In this document: positions 51,615-63,739 of the stretch, one piece after another
Position numbering within the stretch: the first letter of the stretch is position 1
Layout of the letters: the number at the start of each line of letters is the position of its first letter
Assembly (NCBI RefSeq): GCF_025153525.1
Contig: NZ_JANZNR010000001.1
Span: forward strand, 682,001-746,000
Direction: 5' to 3'
From: Psychroserpens sp. SPM9
Lineage (GTDB): Bacteria; Bacteroidota; Bacteroidia; Flavobacteriales; Flavobacteriaceae
Length of the DNA: 64,000 nt
Notes under the pieces: model-generated
Seen by the model: the letters and a program-made list of their open reading frames with translations, nothing else
Told to the model about the DNA's origin: nothing
Database searches by the model: none
Position numbers and translations under genes: made by a program

Positions 51615-53465
51615 CTAAGCCTCAACAAAATCGGTGATTGAAGTAGCTCTCGAAATCCCTAATTTCTTTCTTAATCTGTATCGGTTTTTTACAACACTAT
51701 CGGTTGAAACGCCTAAAATGTTTGCAATTTCTGGTGTTTTTAAATTTAGTTTCTCAAGGGCAAGTAATCGTTCTTCAGCATTTGTTATATCACTGTGAGT
51801 CATTCTAACTTTTACAAAAAACTTAGGGTATACATTTTCAAATTTGGATTTAAAGGTTTCCCAGTCTTCGGCAGTTAATATTTTAGACGTGGTTAAATCC
51901 TGAAGTTTATCCAATTTATTTTCTGATTTTTGATCCGCTTTCAAGACTTTTAATTCAGAGGACAGCAATTCATACTCTCGACTTTTGTGTAATAATTCGG
52001 AAGTAAAAATTTCCAGCTCTTTTTTATGATTTGCTATGTTAAGTTTTAACCGTTCGGCGCGTTGTTTGATGAAGTAAATAATTGCAAGCGCTATTAAAAT
52101 AATAACAGAGAGTACAAAAACCCATAGTTTCTTTTTACTTTCTTGTATGGTCTTGTCTTTTTGAAGAAGTTCTATTTTAGCATTTTGCTTTATAATTTCT
52201 TGCTCTTGTTCTTTTGTTTCATAAAGAGTTTGATAATAAGAAAAGGCATTCGTTTTGGTAACGCTATTTATAGAATCATTTAATTGACTATAAGCTCTAA
52301 AATAGTCTAAAGCTTTGGCTTTATTATTTTGAATCAGATGTATGTTTTGTAAAACTTCATACAATTCTAATATAAGGGATACTTCGCCCCATTTTTTAGC
52401 AGATTCTAATGTTTGCTCTGCTAAAAACTTCGCCTGACTGTATTTTTTTTCTGCACTTAAAACATTGATTTTTGAAACATTAAATGCGAGGCCAGCAATG
52501 GTGTTTTTATCTATACCTTCTATTAGATTACTCGCCTTCTTATAGTGTAGATTAGCTTCGGTATTACGATTTGCTTTAAGATATAACTTGGTTAATTCGG
52601 AATGTAGTAAAATCAAATCCAAATTGGACTTCTCATTATAATCATCATAATATTCCAAAGATTTTAATAAGCTGGCTTCCTTAGATTGGTCGTCTTTAAG
52701 TTTTCCATAAATAAGGCCTTGATTAAAATAATCAATAAACAATCCGCTTTTTTGATTTGCTTTTTTTCGTTTTTCAATAAGTGCTTTATTCTCTTGAATA
52801 GCCTTATCATAAAACCCTAAAGAAGTATAAATATTTGCGATACTTGATTTTATATAATAGACATATTCCTGATCTCCTAAATTTTCATAGTATTGAGCAG
52901 CAAGATTATAATCATTAATCGAAGTAGCGAGATTTCCTTTTGAAAAATAAACTTGACCTCTAAAAAAGATAGCATCTGCGATGTAAATTGAATCCTTATC
53001 AGAATAATTATCTATCGCTTTTGAGTAATTTTTAATCGCTTCATCATAATTTTTACCATTAAAATAAGCCCCTCCTTTTTTAAGGTATATTCCTCCTAAC
53101 AAATACGTGTCATCGGTTTTATCCTTCAGCCCTTCAACTTTATTTAAAAGCTTGAGTGCTCTTTCTCTTTGTCCTAAATGCGTGTTGATAGCGTTTGAGG
53201 CTCTTAGGGTTGCTTCAATAGCAGACTCATACTTTTTTTTCTTAATTGCTAAATCAACATAGGTTTCGGTAAAATTTGCCAACTTAACGATATCATCTCT
53301 CCAATTAAAATTAAACAGCAAACTATCTAAAGCATTAAATTTCTCTTGGGCTTCTGTGGTCGTTTCAATAATATGAACATAATACTCAGGAGTCTCTTGG
53401 GCTGTTATAAAAAGCGAATAAAAAGACAGTAAAACAGTAAAAGGAGTCCCTCTTAATCTCAACAT
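51615..53465 (-). CDS. Membrane-bound TPR regulator with LuxR-type HTH
   Basis: 616 residues: a signal/anchor segment (1-22), about eight tetratricopeptide-like repeats (about 60-400; ALLEKRKKANQ-type helices and GGAYFNGKNYDEAIKNYSKA), a membrane helix (about 445-466), a coiled coil (about 468-535) and a C-terminal HTH (about 560-612, ALEKLNLKTPEIANILGVST then SVVKNRYRLRKKL). This class in Bacteroidota senses through periplasmic TPRs and regulates from the membrane. Divergent from the TULIP-prenyl operon and so a likely regulator of it. Confidence 0.85.
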   Translation of the reverse strand: MLRLRGTPFTVLLSFYSLFITAQETPEYYVHIIETTTEAQEKFNALDSLLFNFNWRDDIVKLANFTETYVDLAIKKKKYESAIEATLRASNAINTHLGQRERALKLLNKVEGLKDKTDDTYLLGGIYLKKGGAYFNGKNYDEAIKNYSKAIDNYSDKDSIYIADAIFFRGQVYFSKGNLATSINDYNLAAQYYENLGDQEYVYYIKSSIANIYTSLGFYDKAIQENKALIEKRKKANQKSGLFIDYFNQGLIYGKLKDDQSKEASLLKSLEYYDDYNEKSNLDLILLHSELTKLYLKANRNTEANLHYKKASNLIEGIDKNTIAGLAFNVSKINVLSAEKKYSQAKFLAEQTLESAKKWGEVSLILELYEVLQNIHLIQNNKAKALDYFRAYSQLNDSINSVTKTNAFSYYQTLYETKEQEQEIIKQNAKIELLQKDKTIQESKKKLWVFVLSVIILIALAIIYFIKQRAERLKLNIANHKKELEIFTSELLHKSREYELLSSELKVLKADQKSENKLDKLQDLTTSKILTAEDWETFKSKFENVYPKFFVKVRMTHSDITNAEERLLALEKLNLKTPEIANILGVSTDSVVKNRYRLRKKLGISRATSITDFVEA

Positions 53466-53785: not shown

Positions 53786-54616
53786 ATGAGCACTAACTCC
53801 TATCCCATTGGCCCCATATGGCAAGCTGTTTTAAAAAGCATATGGAAGCAATTATTTAATCCCAATAGCTCACTATACCTACCCAACATTATAAAAAATG
53901 GTGACCCAAGTTTAGGCCTTCCATCATATGACCCAGCTACATTTACTGGTAAAAGCAAACCTTTTATAATTAGTGGCGTAGATCCTTCAGTGATTAGCCA
54001 GGCCTGCACAGATACAACATCTCCCATACCTCCAGTAGGAAGTGAACCAACATTAGCCTTAGGAGATGTGCTTTTACATAATTTAAGCAATATGAGTTCT
54101 GGTAATATGACGTTTGCTACTGATGCGCCTAACGTAACTATTGATGTCACCGTAGGAACTGAAGAAACACCTTTCATCTTAGAAGAAGTCAATGCTACCG
54201 ATCCCAATTTCTTTTTTAATGTCAAGTGCTGCGATCCAGAATCTACAGGGTCACAAAAATGCAATAAAAGCTGGTCAACATCTGCTCATGGGCAATTTCA
54301 AGCAAACGTTTCGGCGTTCAACATAACCTTAGAATCTAAGTTAAACACACCTAACGGAGCACCTCCTACAATTACCATATTAAATATAGTTTTAAAGGTA
54401 TTACCTAAAGATATTGATCTCAACTTTAATGTAGCCTCATTACCAAAATGGGCACAAACACTGGCCAAAATCGCAGTACAGCAAGGCGTAAACACTAATG
54501 CGATTGCTGATGTCATTCAAAGTTTTTTAAATCAGCCGAGTGTAGAAGGGCATATAGAGAAACTTATTAATGCTCAACTCGCTAAAATTTGGGGACAGAG
54601 CTCATCACTTGTCTAA
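53786..54616 (+). CDS. TULIP-like (takeout/JHBP-pattern) protein A
   Basis: 276 residues, no signal peptide. I do not recognise it as a named family. The layout resembles single-domain TULIP lipid-binding proteins: an N-terminal amphipathic helix (QAVLKSIWKQLFNP), a LPSYDP element (about 46-51), a strand pair LGDVLLHNLSNMSSGNMTFA (about 94-113), alternating strands (VSAFNITLESKL, ITILNIVLKVLP) and a C-terminal helix (FLNQPSVEGHIEKLINAQLA). Four Cys (a CC pair plus singles) lie in the first two thirds. It shares SSGNMT and the helix ends with the protein at 55722. First gene of the operon. Confidence 0.6.
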   Translation: MSTNSYPIGPIWQAVLKSIWKQLFNPNSSLYLPNIIKNGDPSLGLPSYDPATFTGKSKPFIISGVDPSVISQACTDTTSPIPPVGSEPTLALGDVLLHNLSNMSSGNMTFATDAPNVTIDVTVGTEETPFILEEVNATDPNFFFNVKCCDPESTGSQKCNKSWSTSAHGQFQANVSAFNITLESKLNTPNGAPPTITILNIVLKVLPKDIDLNFNVASLPKWAQTLAKIAVQQGVNTNAIADVIQSFLNQPSVEGHIEKLINAQLAKIWGQSSSLV

Positions 54617-54641
54617 GTAAAATTTAATAATAACTAAATAC

Positions 54642-55691
54642 ATGTCATTACCTAAATCACATCCTTATCACAAGGCGATTGAAATTGTAAAAGATGACTT
54701 TTTAGCCGTAGAAAATTACATGACCAACCTCATTCAAAGTCAGGAAAAATACTTAAATGAGGAAGAACAACTCTTCTACAAGAAAGGCAAAAAGTTAAGA
54801 CCACTACTCTTTTTATTAGCCGCAAAAATAGCATCTCGTAATCCTAACGAAATACTAGCCGAAAAAGTGCATGCAGGTGCCGCCTCCATAGAAATGGTAC
54901 ATGTAGGTAGTTTAATCCATGATGACATTGTAGATAAGGCACCTATACGACGTGGCTTACCAACAATATCAGCATCTAGAGGCTATGAAATAGCTCTTAT
55001 TATTGGTGATCTTCAATGGATTAAAGCCACAAGACTGATGTCCAGTTTTATGGAAACCAAAGAAGATATCCTATTAATGAAACGATTCCTTGAAACAGGA
55101 GAAGAAGTTTGTAAAGGGCAGTTAGATGAAATGCTTAGAGAACCTGAAGAAGATATCAATACCCTTATAAATAGATACTACCGAACTATCGACAGAAAAA
55201 CCGGGCAACTTATTTCTTTCGCTTGTGAAGGTGGTGCTCGGATTGTTAACGGACAACCATCAGTGGTTGGTGCTTTACAAAGATATGGCACTTTAATGGG
55301 TCGTGCATTTCAAGTAATGGATGATGTGTTTGATATCGTAAGACCTAATTCCACTTCAGGAAAAGAGCAATTAATTGATTTAAAACAAGGAAGGTTATCC
55401 TTACCAATTATCTATGCCTTAAGAGCATTGCCAAAAGACCATTTCTTGCAAAACATACTTAAGAACCTTCCTTTAACTGAAGAGCAATTACATGAAGGAA
55501 TCTCTATTATAAAAAATGGAAATGGCTGGATTGAAGCCGCTTCTGAAGCTCGTGGAATCGCTTCAAAAGCAATCAGTCAATTAATGCTTCTCCCTGAAAG
55601 CCCTTACAGAAACATTTTAATTGAACTGGCAGATTTCACTGTGAACCAAGGAATCTTTGATGAACACGAAATAGAAACAAATACCAATTAA
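54642..55691 (+). CDS. Trans-isoprenyl (polyprenyl) diphosphate synthase
   Basis: 349 residues. It has KKLRP (about 50-54), a first Asp-rich motif DDIVD at 94-98 and a second, DDVFD, at 227-231, both complete, with the late GKEQLIDLKQGR. Residues just before the first motif are small (Gly89, Ser90), which usually permits long-chain products. It condenses isopentenyl units onto an allylic diphosphate. It sits inside the operon with gaps of 25 and 30 bp, so the product is probably used by the neighbouring proteins. It is not with terpenoid/quinone genes. Confidence 0.9.
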   Translation: MSLPKSHPYHKAIEIVKDDFLAVENYMTNLIQSQEKYLNEEEQLFYKKGKKLRPLLFLLAAKIASRNPNEILAEKVHAGAASIEMVHVGSLIHDDIVDKAPIRRGLPTISASRGYEIALIIGDLQWIKATRLMSSFMETKEDILLMKRFLETGEEVCKGQLDEMLREPEEDINTLINRYYRTIDRKTGQLISFACEGGARIVNGQPSVVGALQRYGTLMGRAFQVMDDVFDIVRPNSTSGKEQLIDLKQGRLSLPIIYALRALPKDHFLQNILKNLPLTEEQLHEGISIIKNGNGWIEAASEARGIASKAISQLMLLPESPYRNILIELADFTVNQGIFDEHEIETNTN

Positions 55692-55721
55692 ACAACATAT
55701 AAACCTTTAATAAACAATATT

Positions 55722-57170
55722 ATGAAAACTAATCAACTACTAGGAAATGACGATTGTAGCCTCATTGACAGATTATGGAAATTCTTATCAGACCCTGCTT
55801 CAGATAAATACTATATCAAAAACATTATAAATGACGGTTTGAAAGTCCCAAGTTTGGGTATTGACATCGCTCCTTTTGCAACTGTAGATGTTGGAGACAT
55901 CCCAAAACAACAAATGTTTAAGGAACCTGTAATTGGTTATATGAATTTGACAATGACCGATACTGTACTCAGCGGAATTGGCTCTTATTCTAGTGGCAAT
56001 CTTACCTGCAAAGCAATATCTCCAACCGATACGCAAGTCGATCTTAATGTTTTGTTTAGTTCGGTGGCTTTTTCAGGAAAATATGATGTTGGATCAGGTG
56101 GGCTTGCTGGATGCGCCTTAGCCACAGGCGCTGCTCTTACTGGAGGCCATGTACACGGTAGCACTTTGGCTTCTGGAGTGACTCCACCAGATAACAATGT
56201 TGAATTGGCACAGTGGTATCGAGATGTTGCATTGCCGAAATCTGAAAATGGTAAAACCTTAGTTGGCGCTTATTATACACATCAAGACACCATTCAAAAA
56301 GTGCAATTAGCAAACAATAATATGTCGCAGCAATACCGACAAGTATTAGCGCAGTCGCAGCAAGCACAAACCAAAGGCGCGGTCGTAGACGCTACAACGT
56401 TCTATCAAGAAGAACAATCAGGATCAAATCCTCCAGGATCTGCTCCTAAAGTAGGAAATGGAGACCAATATTCTGGTGGTTTTGCAGCTCATATTGCTTT
56501 GGTAAAAGCTACAGCATATATGATGGGGTCTGAAGGCTATACACTTGAAGACAGCAACGATTATAGCGAATTATTAAATGCAATGAGTCAATTTGATGAT
56601 AATATCCTTGCGTTTCAAAAAACCAATCCTACTGAAGTTGATACAACAACTATAATGCAATACGTAGCAACGGCGACACCTGTAAACGCTGATTCTAAAA
56701 TTCCTGTTTTTGAATTTACTCAAGATAAAAACGGTGACATTACGGCAACTCAAGTTGGAGAAAAAGACACATGGCCTTTAAATACAGCTTTATACGATCA
56801 AACATACGCTGCCAGAGTCGAACCTCTAGTAATTAGTCCTGAAGACACCTTCAATATTGATGGTAATTTTAGCGATGCAGCTCAACAATTAAAAATTGGA
56901 GTCACAGTTGATTTTTCTAATGCTACAGGAACTTTAGTAGCTACAGCCAAATCCATAACAATGTCTTTAGGAAGTCTTAAAATCACCATTTCAGACAGCG
57001 GATGGAATGGTCATGAATCCTTATATGACAAAATCGCTTCTTGGATTGCAAACAGTAAGTTTTTCCAGGATATCCTAAAAAGCAAAATGCATAAAGCGCT
57101 TAATAGTCAAAGCACATTAGATAGTTTCTCTAAAGTATTAAACGCAGGTATTAAAAAGCTGGGGCTCTAG
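55722..57170 (+). CDS. TULIP-like protein B with central insertion
   Basis: 482 residues, no signal peptide, not recognised as a known family. Ends resemble protein A: a helical start (SLIDRLWKFLSDP), VPSLGIDIAPF, the strand-loop-strand SGIGSYSSGNLTCKAI (about 85-100), VDLNVLFSSVAFSGKYDV, then beta-strands IGVTVDF and LVATAKSITMSLGSL and a C-terminal helical run (MHKALNSQSTLDSFSKVLNA). Between them lies an insertion of about 230 residues (about 135-365) that is mostly helical and Gln/Thr-rich. Probably a paralogue of A with an added domain. Confidence 0.55.
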   Translation: MKTNQLLGNDDCSLIDRLWKFLSDPASDKYYIKNIINDGLKVPSLGIDIAPFATVDVGDIPKQQMFKEPVIGYMNLTMTDTVLSGIGSYSSGNLTCKAISPTDTQVDLNVLFSSVAFSGKYDVGSGGLAGCALATGAALTGGHVHGSTLASGVTPPDNNVELAQWYRDVALPKSENGKTLVGAYYTHQDTIQKVQLANNNMSQQYRQVLAQSQQAQTKGAVVDATTFYQEEQSGSNPPGSAPKVGNGDQYSGGFAAHIALVKATAYMMGSEGYTLEDSNDYSELLNAMSQFDDNILAFQKTNPTEVDTTTIMQYVATATPVNADSKIPVFEFTQDKNGDITATQVGEKDTWPLNTALYDQTYAARVEPLVISPEDTFNIDGNFSDAAQQLKIGVTVDFSNATGTLVATAKSITMSLGSLKITISDSGWNGHESLYDKIASWIANSKFFQDILKSKMHKALNSQSTLDSFSKVLNAGIKKLGL

Positions 57171-57203
57171 AATAGATTCATAAATAAATTAAAACCAAAG
57201 CAG

Positions 57204-60200
57204 ATGAGTTTTTCTAACCTTACCGAACTATTAAACTTCTTAAAAGGATGTGTGAACAGTAATGGAACTCAGTTTTCCTTAACCATAGGGAAAATTGGTT
57301 CTGAAAGTATTGATCATATTATCAAAAGCTATCTGTCAAGCAATCAAACTGCATTAGTTCTTAAAGACCCAACAACACCTTCAATTTCTGAAAACCATAT
57401 AAGTTTTAGTGGTGTTATAGATACTTTATTAGGACTAACCCCTGCGTTAATTGATCTTGAATTTGGCTTAGATGGTACTCAAAAAGCGACACTTATTGTA
57501 AGTTTAAGTCCTTTAAGTTCAAAACAACCAAACCTTAATAAAAACTGGACATTAGGAACATCGTTTCCTATCTGGGCTACCTTAAAATCACCACTTTCAA
57601 AGTTAGAATTTGCAACTCCAGTATTCTATATCTCTTCGATATCGAGTCCTGCTACATCAACGCACCCAACGCTTTCAGAAGGGTTAAACTTTACGGCTGC
57701 TGAACTTGAATACAAAGGAGTCTTGGCGATATTGAATAATTTTCCAAGTACATTTAAATTTAAACAACTACATGGAGGTTTTAAAAACACCTTAGAAACT
57801 CCTTATGTTACAATCAGTTCAGATCCTATAAGTCCAATACCGATAGCTTATTTGGATATTCCATTTGTTTTTTCGGCGGTTAGTGAAAAATACACTCAAA
57901 GGGGAAAAATACCAACAAATCCTCCTGACATAAGTACGTACCTTCAGCTGTCATCAAGCATTAAAATTGGAAGTGTTGTTATTCCTCTAAAAATGCAGTT
58001 CACTCAGCTTGGAGCTGTAATTGCTTTAGTTGCTGAATTGGAAGGCGTTAGTAATTATGCCCTTTCTGAATTTAAAGCGCTTATTAATAAAGCACCCATT
58101 GGTAATTACTTAAGCCAATATGTTGATATCGGAAACACTGTCGGGCTTAGAGATCTTGGTATAGTTTTAAGCACAAGTCCTTTTGGACTCGCCGCCATTT
58201 ACTTAGATTTAGGCACAACAGCTCCTTTGACGGTTATTAAAAATTATGTAGAAATTCCAGACATATCTGTGAACTTCTGGGTAAATGACCCTCAAAACAC
58301 TAAAGATATTACAGCAACAATCAAAGGTCAATTTAATTTTTTAACTGATGTTCCTGTAGATATTACAGCTGTTTTTCCGCAAATGATTTTTAGTGGAGGC
58401 TTAGAACAAAACAGTAACCTTACCATTAAAAATCTCTTTCAAAAATTTATCCCATCTGTTAAAAACATACCAGATATTACCATTGCCAACCTGTTTGTCA
58501 TGGCTAATTTAAAGGAAGAAAATTACAACTTTAATCTAAACGTTGTCAGTGAATGGAAAATTCCTATAGGTATCGCTGCGTTTCAATTAAAAGAAGCCGA
58601 AGTGGCATTATCGTACCAAAAAGGTGCTAAAGGATTTGGCGGTGAAGTTTCTGCTAATGCTGCACTTTTCAATAGTTCTAATACTGAAATTGCCTCATTC
58701 TATGTAGACTGGAATTTACCTAGTGATTTTCTTATTAAAGGTGAATTTCCTAAAATCAATCTTTCTGATCTTGCAAGCACATTAACAGGAGGATATTTGA
58801 ATGCAACAAATGGTCTCCCAGAAATTGAATTAGAAAACTCAACAGTTTCCATCACAATAGGTGAAGCTGGTGTTTCCAATTATTATGATTCCAATTATTA
58901 TGAAGTAATGGACGCCAATACCACTTATGATTTTTCTCTTAGCACAGAAATCGATGTGGATAAAATAGGCAAAGCAGATTTATATTTTGAAATTAAAAAA
59001 ACATCTGAATTAGGCTTTATAACTGGTCTTGTAGTGCAACCTAATTGGACGCCTGCTTCTATATGGTCTGGACTCAAAGGTGTTTTTGACATCTTGGTTT
59101 TGAAAGAAGCCGGACTTATATTGTCTTCAATTGATGATTCAAATTTTAGTCCGCCAAATTTTGAAAAACTACCTTATAAACCGGACGCCATTCAGCCAGG
59201 AATTACATTCTTTTCAGAATTAGAATTAAAAGGTGACGCGTTATCACTTATTGGAAAATTATTTGATTCTGATATCACACTTCAACTCTATGCTTTTGTA
59301 AATCCGAAAGATCTTAGTACTTCAGAAATTAAAGCTACCTTACCGGGTTCTCAAGGACAAGGCATTATCACCTTTAACGGGCTCACCATTGATATGAAGC
59401 CAGGTGCAGGAGAATTCTCTATTGATGCTTCTGCAATTTTAAGAATTCATGGTGAACAATTAACGGTTATTGGCTCAGGAGTTTTACATATAACTCCGCC
59501 GTCAGCAACATTCTCTCTAGATATTCATTGCTGGAAACACCCTTTTGGTATCAAAGGGCTTACCATAATAGATTTTGGTATTGGTGTTGGGATTAATGAT
59601 ACAGGTGTTACTATGGGGCTTCTTGGAAATTTTTTAATTGGTGAAGCAGGACAGGACCAATTTAAGTTTCTAATAGGTGGAGAGATTATTGATTTTGAAG
59701 CTCCTGGCGCTTTTGTATTTGGTCTTGATGATACAGATCCTAACAATCCATTAAAGATTACAGATTTAATTCAACAATTCACATCATTAAATTTAAGTGA
59801 AGTGCCGCTTCTCAATGGTCTTGCTTTTAAAAATATTGACTTTTATGTAGTCGATGATCCCAATGGCTGGCAGGCTCCTAACGGACATTTCTATAAAACA
59901 GGTATAGGTGTTGATGCCGATATTTTATTCTATACCTATGAACTAAAACTATTGATGGAAGTCAATTTTGATAAAGGAATTATTGCCAATGGGAGTATTA
60001 ATAAACCTATAAGTATCCTAGATATACTCACAATATCAGATGCAACTGGAGATAAAGGTCCAAATGCTTCAATAGATACTACTAATCTAAGCCGGTTAAG
60101 CACTGTAAACGGGCTATTAAATGATGCTTGGGTAACGGCAAAAAATGACGATGATTGTACGGTTTCAAATATGGACCGCCTATTATATCCGGAAACTTTT

Positions 60201-61046
60201 ACATATCCTGAAAACAGCTTGCCTGCAGCCGTTGGTTTTTTACCAATTAATATTTTAAGATCTGATATGGAAGCTGATCCATACTTTAGTTTTTCTGGCG
60301 GAATACAATTTTTAGGACTAACAGAAACATTTTCAGGATCTGCCACAAGTGATGGCTTTGAAGTGAATTTTCATGCTGAATTAGCAGATTTGTTTAGAGC
60401 ACAGTTTATGTGTTCTTATGCCAAAGGTAAAAGCTTTACTGGATCTGCTCAAGGTCATTTTGACCTAAGTTTAGATTTTCCTAACGGTTTATCAATAGAC
60501 GGAATACCTATTTTACCTGCATTTTCAATTCACGGACCCAATGCAAGTTTAGATATTGCTTGTGCTATTAATTTAAGCGACCCTTATCTATCCTTTGATT
60601 TAGATTTTAATTGGGGAAGCTTTCATTTTAATCCCAAGTTTAGAATCGATGCAAAAGCCGTTGTAGATTTACTCTCTAACCTTTGGGAGCATATTAAAAA
60701 TTGGATTAATACCAATTTAAAAACATTCTTTAAAGACCTTTTAAGCGATGTTACAAAATTTGTGGAAGCCATTGCTAACGGTGTACTCAAACTAGGTCAA
60801 GATGCCTTTTTTGTGGCCAGAGCTCTTTATAAATTTTTCAAACAAGAAATAACTGCTGTCGCTAAATTTTTATACCACGAAATAGAGTTTGGATTTACAG
60901 CTGTAGTAGAAGCCTTAGTCAAAGTATTTGATGTAGGGATAGACGAAGTATTGCGAATAATGGAAGCCATCGGAGAACAGTGTGCTGTTGCTTCAGGAGA
61001 CCTTTTAATTGGAAGTGGTGACCCTATAACAGAAAATAACTTTTAA
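57204..61046 (+). CDS. Giant beta-rich protein with helical C-terminal tail
   Basis: 1280 residues, no signal peptide, no family recognised. Residues 1 to about 1150 are long runs of alternating hydrophobic/polar strands in loosely repeated blocks (for example SVNFWVNDPQNTKDITATIK, TTYDFSLSTEIDVDKIGKAD, FTFSGGIQFLGL-type segments), suggesting an elongated beta structure. Residues about 1150-1263 are amphipathic helices (VVDLLSNLWEHIKNWINTNL; FFKDLLSDVTKFVEAIANGV). Such a shape would suit a lipid groove or conduit. This is only inferred from pattern and context. It lies 33 bp after TULIP-like B and 11 bp before the next gene. Confidence 0.7.
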   Translation: MSFSNLTELLNFLKGCVNSNGTQFSLTIGKIGSESIDHIIKSYLSSNQTALVLKDPTTPSISENHISFSGVIDTLLGLTPALIDLEFGLDGTQKATLIVSLSPLSSKQPNLNKNWTLGTSFPIWATLKSPLSKLEFATPVFYISSISSPATSTHPTLSEGLNFTAAELEYKGVLAILNNFPSTFKFKQLHGGFKNTLETPYVTISSDPISPIPIAYLDIPFVFSAVSEKYTQRGKIPTNPPDISTYLQLSSSIKIGSVVIPLKMQFTQLGAVIALVAELEGVSNYALSEFKALINKAPIGNYLSQYVDIGNTVGLRDLGIVLSTSPFGLAAIYLDLGTTAPLTVIKNYVEIPDISVNFWVNDPQNTKDITATIKGQFNFLTDVPVDITAVFPQMIFSGGLEQNSNLTIKNLFQKFIPSVKNIPDITIANLFVMANLKEENYNFNLNVVSEWKIPIGIAAFQLKEAEVALSYQKGAKGFGGEVSANAALFNSSNTEIASFYVDWNLPSDFLIKGEFPKINLSDLASTLTGGYLNATNGLPEIELENSTVSITIGEAGVSNYYDSNYYEVMDANTTYDFSLSTEIDVDKIGKADLYFEIKKTSELGFITGLVVQPNWTPASIWSGLKGVFDILVLKEAGLILSSIDDSNFSPPNFEKLPYKPDAIQPGITFFSELELKGDALSLIGKLFDSDITLQLYAFVNPKDLSTSEIKATLPGSQGQGIITFNGLTIDMKPGAGEFSIDASAILRIHGEQLTVIGSGVLHITPPSATFSLDIHCWKHPFGIKGLTIIDFGIGVGINDTGVTMGLLGNFLIGEAGQDQFKFLIGGEIIDFEAPGAFVFGLDDTDPNNPLKITDLIQQFTSLNLSEVPLLNGLAFKNIDFYVVDDPNGWQAPNGHFYKTGIGVDADILFYTYELKLLMEVNFDKGIIANGSINKPISILDILTISDATGDKGPNASIDTTNLSRLSTVNGLLNDAWVTAKNDDDCTVSNMDRLLYPETFTYPENSLPAAVGFLPINILRSDMEADPYFSFSGGIQFLGLTETFSGSATSDGFEVNFHAELADLFRAQFMCSYAKGKSFTGSAQGHFDLSLDFPNGLSIDGIPILPAFSIHGPNASLDIACAINLSDPYLSFDLDFNWGSFHFNPKFRIDAKAVVDLLSNLWEHIKNWINTNLKTFFKDLLSDVTKFVEAIANGVLKLGQDAFFVARALYKFFKQEITAVAKFLYHEIEFGFTAVVEALVKVFDVGIDEVLRIMEAIGEQCAVASGDLLIGSGDPITENNF

Positions 61047-61057
61047 AAATAAATATT

Positions 61058-62335
61058 ATGGCAAATTTTGATATGGCTGTTGGAATAGACGGCGGAACAA
61101 TGGATCAAGGAAGTAAAATTATTTATGAAAAACTGTATCCAAAACTGTTTACAGGAAGTCAAAAAATTAAATTGGAAGGCATTGATTTTACTGTGGGATG
61201 GAATGTAAAATCGGCACCAACATTCACCCTTTCGGCACCTAGTAATCCCGAAGCATTAATTCGTGCCCATTTAATGGACTGGAATCATCAATATCCTGTT
61301 GAAAAACAAACCATAGTTGAAACCTATTTGAACTCTATGTCTGGCAGTATTTTTCAAATGAACATGAAAGATGTTGAGATGACTGTTTCCAGTACGAGTC
61401 ATTCTGGAACCGATCAGGTAGATGTAACTATTATCGTTGAAGCTAGCAGTACTAACGGAGTTATGACTTTAAACCCAATCAAAGCAACAGGAAAAACAAG
61501 TAACCCATCAGATCAATCATTAATCAATTCTGTTATTCTTCCTCAGGCAATGACAATGGCTAGAACTATTTTAAGCGGTATTAACCTTCCGCCTCTAAAA
61601 TTTGGTGATGTTAAGCTTACGGCTCCTAATTTGATAGTAACTCAAAATCATATTGTAGCTTTAGCTAATCTGGAGGGCAAATCTGTTCCGGCTCCACCAT
61701 TTCCTTCCTCGTGGCCATCAAACCCGTTTTTTGCACTCTTAAGTAGTGATGCTAAAATGGAAATGGCAAAAACATCGACCAGTTATATTAACGGGAAATC
61801 ATTTGGGAAAAGTGGTAAAATTGGTTTTAAAATAGGCGACTTACATTATGGTGCTAAAATAACAATGGGAACATTAAGCATCGCTGACGCTGGTGCAACA
61901 TCCATTAAATTTGAAACTACAGGAACTGGTAATGTAAATGCCGGAATTAAGATTGGATGCACAAATATTGGTATTAATTACGATTTATATGCCAAACCAA
62001 AACTAGCTGGCCAAATAGATCTTAGCATCGAGAATGGTGTAAATATTGTGGCTAAAACCTCAAAAACGGATACCTTCGTACTGGTTTTAAAACCTTCAGG
62101 AAATCCTATAGAATGGATTTTGTCAGCAATAACCGACCCACTATTACAAACGATAACGGCTGCATTTTCACCCTTAATTAGCACGTTATTTAATGGGTAT
62201 TCCTATAATACAGGACCTTTACCTTCGATCCCAATTGCAATAGACGGCATTACACTTACAGCAACTCCAACAGGTGTGACACTAGGCGACTATAATGGTA
62301 TGATGAGTGCCACAGGTAATATTAACATTTCATAA
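61058..62335 (+). CDS. Two-domain TULIP-like protein (BPI/P47-like pattern)
   Basis: 425 residues, no signal peptide. The start (FDMAVGIDGGTMDQGSKIIY) has the short strand then helix that opens BPI-type TULIP domains. A Pro-rich centre (SVPAPPFPSSWPSNPF, about 208-223) separates two halves. The second half ends in PLPSIPIAIDGITLTATPTG, like the C-terminal strand pair of BPI. Clostridial P47 proteins have a comparable layout. Function is inferred as lipid binding. No toxin-complex genes are nearby. Confidence 0.5.
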   Translation: MANFDMAVGIDGGTMDQGSKIIYEKLYPKLFTGSQKIKLEGIDFTVGWNVKSAPTFTLSAPSNPEALIRAHLMDWNHQYPVEKQTIVETYLNSMSGSIFQMNMKDVEMTVSSTSHSGTDQVDVTIIVEASSTNGVMTLNPIKATGKTSNPSDQSLINSVILPQAMTMARTILSGINLPPLKFGDVKLTAPNLIVTQNHIVALANLEGKSVPAPPFPSSWPSNPFFALLSSDAKMEMAKTSTSYINGKSFGKSGKIGFKIGDLHYGAKITMGTLSIADAGATSIKFETTGTGNVNAGIKIGCTNIGINYDLYAKPKLAGQIDLSIENGVNIVAKTSKTDTFVLVLKPSGNPIEWILSAITDPLLQTITAAFSPLISTLFNGYSYNTGPLPSIPIAIDGITLTATPTGVTLGDYNGMMSATGNINIS

Positions 62336-62352
62336 ATTAAAACCACAATATT

Positions 62353-63384
62353 ATGCCACCTACTACAAAATTTATGAGTTCAGGAAGTGTGAGTTCTGCA
62401 AAAGCTATGACAGTCGATTTTATCAACGTTGGGCAAGGAAATGCTGTTCTGGTGAGTTTTCCAAATGGAAAATTTCTATTGGTTGACTGTGGTTCACAAA
62501 AAACTAGTTTAAGTGGAAAGCCATTTACTCATGCAAGAGACTATATTACTAAAGTAACTAATGGCAGTCAAATTGATACCGTAGTTATTACTCATGGAGA
62601 CACAGACCATACTGCTTTTATTCCCTATCTACAGGAAACTAAAAGTCCGGAATATGTATTTTATGGCGGAAAACGATCACATTTAGATGCCGATGTTTTA
62701 AAATGGATTCAAGGTTTGGAAAAAACTAAAAAAAACGTGTTCTACTATAATAAAAATTATTCTTCTTTAGCTCCTGATGCCGAATATGGCTCACCGACCA
62801 ATGATGGTGAACCTGAGGTTTACACCCTATCAGCAAACTTTGATGGAGGTGATCCTAATTCGAACAGTGTTGTTTTATTAATCGTTTATGGAAGTCAAGG
62901 CGTGTTATTAACTGGTGACGCTGATGTATCTACCGAGAATTTTATTATTCAAAATATTCCAAAAGTCATTCTGAAACGATGTACATTGTTTATGCTAGCA
63001 CATCATGGGTCATATTATTCTACGGGTCAAGCTTTTCTAGATATTATTACACCAAATTTTTCTACAGTTTCTGCTAGTGGAACCAATAAAGCGTATGCAC
63101 ACCCAGATTGTATAATTATGGGTATGTTATCTAAAAAAGTTTTGGATGGTGCCATCAATCATGGAGTAATTTGTAGTGATGGTAAAAATTTACCTTATAA
63201 AAAATCGAACACAACCAAAGCTATAATAACAACGGCTACCAATGGAGATATTCGTTATGTAACGGATGGTACTAATTATAAAATTTTAGCTAGTTCTACT
63301 AATACTAATCGTTTTATGATGCCTATGGAAGAACGTGCCATATCAATTAAGGAAAACAAAAAAAGCCCAAACTATCATATCTAG
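62353..63384 (+). CDS. Metallo-beta-lactamase-fold hydrolase (ComEC C-terminal type)
   Basis: 343 residues. Opening VDFINVGQGNAVLVSF, metal motif HGDTDH at 81-86, LLTGDAD (about 189-195) and LAHHG (215-219) match the nuclease-like domain of ComEC/Rec2, here without membrane helices. It may cut nucleic acid or a phosphodiester/phosphate ester. A phosphatase acting on prenyl phosphate is conceivable. Last gene of the operon. The 3' end lies within a hairpin that also terminates ssb. Confidence 0.82.
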   Translation: MPPTTKFMSSGSVSSAKAMTVDFINVGQGNAVLVSFPNGKFLLVDCGSQKTSLSGKPFTHARDYITKVTNGSQIDTVVITHGDTDHTAFIPYLQETKSPEYVFYGGKRSHLDADVLKWIQGLEKTKKNVFYYNKNYSSLAPDAEYGSPTNDGEPEVYTLSANFDGGDPNSNSVVLLIVYGSQGVLLTGDADVSTENFIIQNIPKVILKRCTLFMLAHHGSYYSTGQAFLDIITPNFSTVSASGTNKAYAHPDCIIMGMLSKKVLDGAINHGVICSDGKNLPYKKSNTTKAIITTATNGDIRYVTDGTNYKILASSTNTNRFMMPMEERAISIKENKKSPNYHI

Positions 63385-63406: not shown

Positions 63407-63739
63407 TTATTTCCCTAACATTAAAAGTTCATTGCAAACAATTTCAGTCACATAACGTTTTTGACCATCTTTATCATCATAGCTTCTTGATGTTAATTTT
63501 CCTTCAATAGCAACCTCTTTTCCTTTGGTTACATATTTCTCAATAATTTCGGCGGTTTTACCCCAAGCGACTACATTGTGCCATTGCGTATCGGTTATCT
63601 TTTCGCCTTCTGCATTTTTATAGCTTTCATTTGTAGCTATTGAAAATTTGGCTAACATTTTTCCTGATTCAAGATTAATGATTTCTGGATCATTTCCTAA
63701 GTTTCCGATTAATTGTACTTTGTTTCTTAACGTATTCAT
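63407..63739 (-). CDS. ssb: Single-stranded DNA-binding protein, short form
   Basis: 110 residues, all OB fold (LRNKVQLIGNLGNDPEIINL, then AKFSIATNESYKNAEGEK, and TQWHNVVAWGKTAEI). The disordered tail and acidic DDIPF-like tip that recruit partners in E. coli SSB are missing, so it is probably an accessory SSB. Short paralogues of this length occur in other Flavobacteriia. Upstream lies a phased repeat (63841-63880). Confidence 0.93.
   Translation of the reverse strand: MNTLRNKVQLIGNLGNDPEIINLESGKMLAKFSIATNESYKNAEGEKITDTQWHNVVAWGKTAEIIEKYVTKGKEVAIEGKLTSRSYDDKDGQKRYVTEIVCNELLMLGK

What the first reader, a model, noticed from the sequence alone, without database searches (positions are those of the whole stretch)
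53786..63384. Six-gene TULIP-like/prenyl-synthase operon: possible undescribed prenyl-lipid binding system
Seen: six same-strand genes separated by 11-33 bp. They encode three proteins whose layout resembles TULIP lipid-binding folds, a complete trans-polyprenyl diphosphate synthase, a 1280-aa beta-rich protein and a ComEC-type MBL enzyme. Known: animal takeout/JHBP proteins of the TULIP superfamily bind hydrophobic ligands including isoprenoids, and prenyl synthases make isoprenoid diphosphates. Inferred: the synthase supplies a prenyl ligand that the TULIP-like proteins bind or move, with the giant protein as a conduit. None has a signal peptide, so the system would be cytoplasmic or exported by an unrecognised route. 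The fold calls rest on pattern only.
Basis: partly seen in the sequence, partly recalled or inferred. Interest (0 to 1): 0.85.

Follow-up and report, generated by a model that had tools for sequence, protein, structure and literature searches.

The report
Prenyl-synthase and lipid-carrier-like operon
Six neighbouring genes in a bacterium pair an enzyme that makes oily isoprenoid chains with proteins that may resemble insect hormone carriers and with a giant protein; the enzyme and the giant are also neighbours in a distant actinomycete, so this looks like a real, undescribed gene system whose job is still unproven.

Summary
In detail: six same-strand genes, gaps 25, 30, 33, 11, 17 bp. Gene 2 is a polyprenyl diphosphate synthase with both DDxxD motifs; gene 6 a ComEC-type MBL-fold enzyme with metal motifs. 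Genes 1-5 and the start of gene 6 recur in order in a Flavobacteriaceae MAG (L003). Synthase and giant are also linked in G036 (with gene 5) and on an actinomycete megaplasmid (L037); gene 1 and gene 3 relatives there are only weakly supported. The four synthases form one clade (100/99), apart from the host's two other copies.

TULIP: partly supported. L003's gene 3 matches JHBP at 0.0028, G036 and L037 operon proteins at 7e-4 to 0.011 (all below cut-off), one G036 protein matches Group 7 allergen above cut-off; G036's only two JHBP matches lie in its operon. The window's own proteins match none; gene 5 has no TULIP support; both structure predictions failed (pLDDT 32, 30). P47 is absent. The giant's family spans several phyla, in some loci beside hydrolases.

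Best reading, inferred: the synthase makes a long prenyl chain held by TULIP-like proteins on a giant scaffold, with an exchangeable enzyme. Function is unproven.

The parts
53786..54616 (+). gene 1: 276-aa protein, possibly TULIP-like, N-terminal part similar to gene 3
   Evidence: ORF; 68% to L003 8046-8897; hhalign with gene 3 31% (window+L003) or 80% (G036 protein added); Pfam only HTH_35 at 0.06, below cut-off
54642..55691 (+). gene 2: trans-polyprenyl diphosphate synthase of an operon-linked clade
   Evidence: PF00348 8.6e-51; DDIVD at 94, DDVFD at 227; clade with three other operon synthases 100/99
55722..57170 (+). gene 3: 482-aa protein, probably TULIP/JHBP-like at its start, with a long middle part
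   Evidence: 70% to L003 9980-11428, which matches JHBP at 0.0028, below cut-off; the window copy itself has no Pfam match; relation to the similarly placed G036 and L037 proteins is weak (E 0.0013 in a small library; no BLAST match)
57204..61046 (+). gene 4: 1280-aa giant protein, fold of the body not shown, amphipathic helix-like tail (about 1150-1260)
   Evidence: 70% to L003; G036 E 4e-7; Streptantibioticus and Priestia; wider family through G036's giant; helical moment 0.32-0.38 over 1101-1280 against 0.13-0.22 before; no Pfam match
61058..62335 (+). gene 5: 425-aa protein of unknown fold
   Evidence: 75% to L003 15345-16622; 23-25% to a G036 440-aa protein, E 5e-11 and 9e-14; one Pfam entry at 0.096, below cut-off
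62353..63384 (+). gene 6: ComEC-type metallo-beta-lactamase-fold enzyme
   Evidence: PF00753 8.3e-13; ComEC-type solved structures from 2.6e-12; HGDTDH at 81, TGD at 187, HHGS at 217; start conserved in L003

Best explanation
A mobile prenyl-lipid carrier operon whose products start out in the cytoplasm. Gene 2 makes a long-chain polyprenyl diphosphate. The TULIP-like proteins (gene 3 probably, gene 1 possibly) hold that chain, or something made from it, in a hydrophobic tube. The giant gene-4 protein is the scaffold or groove on which the complex assembles; gene 5 is a conserved partner of unknown fold; gene 6 is an exchangeable enzyme that acts on the ligand or on a target. Shown: the genes, their conservation, the synthase clade, intact catalytic motifs, the recurrent link of synthase and giant. 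Inferred: TULIP fold in this copy, long chain length (small residue five before the first DDxxD; the rule is recalled), ligand binding, scaffold role, the task of gene 6.
For: Synthase and giant linked in the window, L003, L004 and L037, that is in Bacteroidota and Actinomycetota. The four synthases are one group at 100/99 with G036's sister to Streptantibioticus's (96/94), apart from the host's two other copies, which suggests a module that moved between phyla. JHBP or Group 7 allergen (one arthropod TULIP family by a passage of PMC5507252) is the best Pfam hit of five proteins of these operons, one of them L003's gene 3; in the whole G036 genome the only two JHBP matches at E up to 1 lie in the operon. 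A profile of two TULIP-like proteins from G036 and L037 ranks L003 gene 1 and window gene 3 next after its own family among about 50 proteins (7e-4, 0.0012). Precedent: takeout 1 with bound ubiquinone, seen as a title in reference lists.
Against: None of the window's own proteins matches a TULIP family; 0 JHBP matches in its genome. All JHBP hits are below the cut-off, and 4 of 14 control genomes ring at E up to 1. Profile-profile comparison of genes 1, 3 and 5 with the G036/L037 TULIP-like set: probability 3, 1 and 0.4%. Gene 3 has no BLAST match to the similarly placed G036 and L037 proteins. Both AlphaFold models unusable. No significant solved-structure match for genes 1, 3, 4, 5. 11 of the 14 other giant loci read have no synthase match, so the giant is not tied to prenyl lipids. 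No enzyme acting after the synthase was recognised.
Confidence: 0.37

Rival explanations
1. Payload system: the giant and the TULIP-like proteins package or deliver a variable enzyme (here the MBL), the prenyl lipid helping membrane passage, in the manner considered for orfX-p47 clusters.
For: Enzymes differ: MBL here and, by its start, in L003; PF04488 glycosyltransferase and C39/C70-like peptidase in G036; an Exo_endo_phos-type gene directly before the giant in L032, L034, L036 and L047, and in the same run three ORFs away in L046. orfX-p47 clusters lie beside toxin genes (section 2.4 of PMC7020563). A Chryseobacterium piperi toxin cluster has proteins with an isoprenoid-synthase-like domain of unclear role and no p47/orfX (passage of PMC6367388).
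Against: No P47 match, no signal peptide, no export or immunity gene recognised; no enzyme besides the synthase recognised in the five L037 frames scanned.
Confidence: 0.25
2. Biosynthetic cluster: the synthase supplies a precursor and gene 6 with unknown partners makes a prenyl-derived small molecule; the other proteins are structural or storage proteins.
For: Separate synthase clade; a glycosyltransferase in the G036 version.
Against: No cyclase, UbiA-type transferase or oxidase among the six proteins or the ten G036 proteins scanned.
Confidence: 0.15
3. Anti-phage or anti-plasmid defence with the MBL as effector.
For: Gene 6 matches PADLOC models LmuA 1.2e-18 and RTasMBL 2.7e-16; some giant loci lie near Cmr and SIR2 (L036), SLOG/SLATT (L033) or TIR genes (L038).
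Against: Those matches are to the general MBL fold; genes 1-5 match no PADLOC family at E up to 1.
Confidence: 0.1
4. Loose neighbours without common function.
For: Gene order differs between loci; 11 of 14 other giant loci read have no synthase match.
Against: Tight spacing, conservation in L003, one synthase clade and synthase-giant linkage in two phyla.
Confidence: 0.07

Closest known systems
orfX-p47 gene clusters (PF06597 P47, OrfX2)
   Same: clusters with TULIP-type proteins, often beside varying toxin genes (PMC7020563 section 2.4; PMC6791001 passages)
   Different: no P47 match here; a prenyl synthase and a giant protein are present; the words prenyl, synthase and synthetase do not occur in the main text of PMC7020563
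JHBP / takeout / Group 7 allergen TULIP family of arthropods
   Same: weak profile matches of five operon proteins in L003, G036 and L037; takeout 1 was crystallised with ubiquinone (title seen)
   Different: bacterial, no signal peptide in the window proteins, JHBP scores below cut-off, beside a synthase
long-chain trans-polyprenyl diphosphate synthases (heptaprenyl component II, nonaprenyl, solanesyl)
   Same: PF00348, two DDxxD motifs; best solved-structure matches of gene 2 and of the clade profile
   Different: separate group in the 14-row tree; scores far below the NCBIfam cut-offs
DUF6603 giant proteins (PF20248)
   Same: one relative of the giant (G347, L064) carries DUF6603 at 6e-148, outside the shared stretch
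   Different: gene 4 itself has no DUF6603 match
ComEC/Rec2 metallo-beta-lactamase domain
   Same: best NCBIfam and solved-structure matches of gene 6
   Different: stand-alone, without a membrane part

Membership tests
orfX-p47 cluster | P47 domain PF06597 | tested here: not met
   no match in the own genome, among the six proteins or in 249 family genomes, own included; the control rings in 1 of 14
orfX-p47 cluster | neighbouring toxin gene | tested here: inconclusive
   gene 6 is an MBL-fold enzyme of unknown target; no toxin family among the matches
TULIP superfamily (JHBP/takeout/Group 7 type) | profile match | tested here: inconclusive
   window proteins none; L003 gene 3 JHBP 0.0028; G036 and L037 proteins JHBP 7e-4 to 0.011, all below cut-off; one G036 protein Group 7 allergen 22.0 bits against 21
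TULIP superfamily (JHBP/takeout/Group 7 type) | tubular fold | tested here: inconclusive
   model of gene 1 pLDDT 32; genes 3 and 5 not modelled; no fold search run
TULIP superfamily (JHBP/takeout/Group 7 type) | bound hydrophobic ligand | not testable with these tools
   needs biochemistry
trans-polyprenyl diphosphate synthase | PF00348 and two DDxxD motifs | tested here: met
trans-polyprenyl diphosphate synthase | product chain length | not testable with these tools
   long chain only inferred from residues before the first motif
DUF6603 giant proteins | PF20248 match | tested here: not met
   no match for the giants of the window, L003, G036, L037, L032, L033, L034, L035, L036 and L047
ComEC-type MBL | HxxxDH and further metal-ligand motifs | tested here: met
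   HGDTDH, TGD, HHGS; the motif rule is recalled

The most novel reading that the evidence does not exclude
A previously undescribed, horizontally moving bacterial system in which a dedicated polyprenyl synthase makes the ligand for its own JHBP/takeout-like TULIP proteins, assembled on a giant scaffold of a cross-phylum family with exchangeable enzymes: a bacterial, protein-borne isoprenoid carrier.
Probability: 0.32. Interest if true: 0.85.

Novelty: categorically new. Interest (0 to 1): 0.6.

Why it matters
Three bacterial TULIP families and some predicted ones are named in PMC6791001 (passages). An operon that encodes both putative carriers and the enzyme for their putative ligand makes the ligand question directly testable by co-expression and lipid analysis. 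It also ties a giant protein family without a described function to a testable context. 'Categorically new' is for the gene system as a unit: it fails the P47 test, and I saw no description of such a system in the listings. Those were searches of an open-access library; one search listed 20 of 2,410 papers. The mechanism is not shown.

Tried and rejected
Structure: AlphaFold on gene 1 with one orthologue (pLDDT 32) and on residues 1-1200 of gene 4 (pLDDT 29.6); both unusable, so no fold search was run. Solved-structure searches for genes 1, 3, 4, 5 and for the G036 TULIP-like proteins: nothing significant (gene 3 gave V-ATPase and tamavidin at E 0.24-0.9). Phage origin: no relatives in viral contigs with gene 3, its alignment, or three giants, nor in phage records with gene 4; gene 3 has none in plasmids. 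The gene-5 profile gave 21 other genomes at E up to 0.01, most with one recurring 359-aa frame; the one looked at (L013) looks like chorismate synthase (motif recalled), so I took these as chance. The upstream TPR protein as a marker of the empty site: too many paralogues. Gene 5 in Streptantibioticus: only a weak C-terminal likeness of one piece (E 0.012-0.07), not claimed. only waited.

After the report check I reran comparisons. It showed the start of gene 6 in L003, confirmed the synthase in 3 of 14 loci, and showed that gene 3 and gene 1 are only weakly related to the G036 and Streptantibioticus proteins; for that I lowered the best explanation from 0.40 to 0.37 and the novel case from 0.35 to 0.32, and raised 'loose neighbours' from 0.05 to 0.07.

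Full report
Observation. The window is G000:C11:682001-746000 of a 3.8-Mb genome; that it is a Flavobacteriaceae genome is my inference from its relatives, no call names it. Upstream lies a divergent TPR protein (51615-53465, -), downstream a convergent gene for a protein that looks like single-strand-binding protein (63407-63739, -; recalled).

Families. Gene 2 matches polyprenyl synthetase (8.6e-51), gene 6 the metallo-beta-lactamase fold (8.3e-13; ComEC/Rec2 3.3e-18, below its cut-off). Genes 1, 3, 4 and 5 have no Pfam or NCBIfam match over a cut-off; the entries listed are HTH_35 0.06 for gene 1, Ig_CycH 0.096 for gene 5 and CFI-box 2.4e-4 for gene 3, all below cut-off. Gene 2 has DDIVD and DDVFD; gene 6 HGDTDH, TGD and HHGS. 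No window protein has a hydrophobic N-terminal stretch.

Conservation close by. A scan of genome contigs with gene 3 gave one relative, a Flavobacteriaceae MAG contig (L003), with genes 1-5 in order at 68-79% identity and the first 47 residues of gene 6 (79%) up to the contig end. Codon position 3 differs in 55-61% of codons, position 2 in 10-19%. Of 23 genus genomes only the own one has the giant. A gene-5 search of 199 family genomes gave the own genome and G036.

G036. On one strand it carries a C39/C70-like peptidase, a gene-5 relative (E 9e-14 to L003's), a 469-aa protein in the place of gene 3, a synthase (38-40%), proteins of 548, 231 and 230 aa, a DXD glycosyltransferase, a 1252-aa giant (E 4e-7 to gene 4), a membrane-type and a lipoprotein-like protein. 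The 469-aa protein has no BLAST match to gene 3; its profile with the L037 relative finds gene 3 at 0.0013 in a small library, and the reverse search fails. Calling it gene-3-like is therefore tentative.

Across phyla. G036's giant has relatives in five plasmid records; its 548-aa and 469-aa proteins in Streptantibioticus cattleyicolor; the window's giant in Streptantibioticus and Priestia. Streptantibioticus pSCATT (L037) has in a row a relative of the 469-aa protein (26%), a synthase (54% to G036, 37% to the window), a TULIP-like pair in two frames, and a giant (22-25% to the window and L003 giants). Of the window's genes only 2 and 4 match L037 directly at E up to 0.01.

Synthase clade. The own genome has three PF00348 genes. 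In a tree of 14 synthases the four operon-linked ones form one group (100/99), G036 and Streptantibioticus sisters (96/94), apart from both other host copies; 0 of 500 label shuffles did as well. Three rows were flagged as long branches and the Streptantibioticus row for odd composition; several plasmid rows begin at an internal methionine. The residue five before the first DDxxD is G or A; that small residues there go with long chains is recalled.

TULIP question. Best Pfam hits: G036 469-aa JHBP 7e-4, 231-aa JHBP 0.011, 230-aa Group 7 allergen 1.9e-4 (22.0 bits, cut-off 21); L037 frame JHBP 0.0023; L003 gene 3 JHBP 0.0028. All JHBP hits are below the cut-off of 29.2 bits. Over whole genomes JHBP gave two matches in G036 (9.8e-4, 0.114), both in the operon, and none in G000, G079, G1070 or G985; 4 of 14 controls ring at E up to 1, none over the cut-off. 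Without a TULIP match: window genes 1, 3, 5; L003 genes 1 and 5; G036's 548-aa and gene-5-like proteins; three other L037 frames or pieces. PMC5507252 places Der p 7 with JHBP and takeout (passage). Profile-profile comparison of genes 1, 3 and 5 with the G036/L037 set is weak, while a two-sequence profile of that set ranks L003 gene 1 (7e-4) and window gene 3 (0.0012) next after its own family in a library of about 50 proteins. I call gene 3 probably, gene 1 possibly, gene 5 not shown to be TULIP.

Giant. Relatives were read in 14 other loci: L003, L004, L032-L038, L046-L048, L063, L064. A tblastn match to the synthases was found in 3 of 14 (L003, L004, L037); L048, L063 and L064 are short (3.8, 10.2, 12 kb) and match only by profile or protein search. 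An Exo_endo_phos-type gene lies directly before the giant in L032, L034 (by 31% likeness to L032's), L036 and L047, and three ORFs away in L046; the L036 and L047 Pfam scores are below cut-off. Profile searches found relatives in 3 other of 395 phylum genomes, 3 other of 395 class genomes and 2 other of 397 family genomes (samples overlap, thresholds differ). A helix-like amphipathic stretch follows the body in the six giants profiled; in L032, L033 and L046 it runs on into repeats of about 33 residues, judged by eye, and in Calothrix it is followed by other sequence. One relative, in L064, has DUF6603.

Mechanism. See best explanation. The steps from synthase product to bound ligand and the task of gene 6 are inference. 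P47 membership is rejected; the payload reading stays a live rival because the enzymes beside the giant vary and because of the orfX-p47 precedent (PMC7020563 section 2.4).

Literature seen. PMC7020563: outline with abstract, passages, section 2.4. PMC6791001, PMC5507252, PMC12419801, PMC11009388, PMC6367388: passages. Others: search listings only. The takeout 1-ubiquinone structure was seen as a title in reference lists. 'DUF6603' occurs in 0 papers of the library.

Noticed in passing
51615-53465 (-): TPR protein with a weak LuxR/sigma-type end, divergent to the operon; possible regulator. Matches in 21 of 21 genus genomes, 10 in the own genome.
   Followed up: partly
L006:12162-13124: A DDE-type transposase (IS1595-like by recall) about 1.8 kb beyond the operon, outside the window.
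   Followed up: no
L037:12780-14517: The Streptantibioticus TULIP-like pair is split between two frames; both public records of the strain give two pieces.
   Followed up: partly
   Followed up: partly
L005:321-12282: A second run of same-strand genes in G036 near its operon (peptidase-, lysozyme- and subtilisin-like by recall); two large ones scanned have no Pfam match over a cut-off.
   Followed up: partly
L032, L033, L046 giants: C-terminal tails that look like repeats of about 33 residues (by eye); function unknown.
   Followed up: partly
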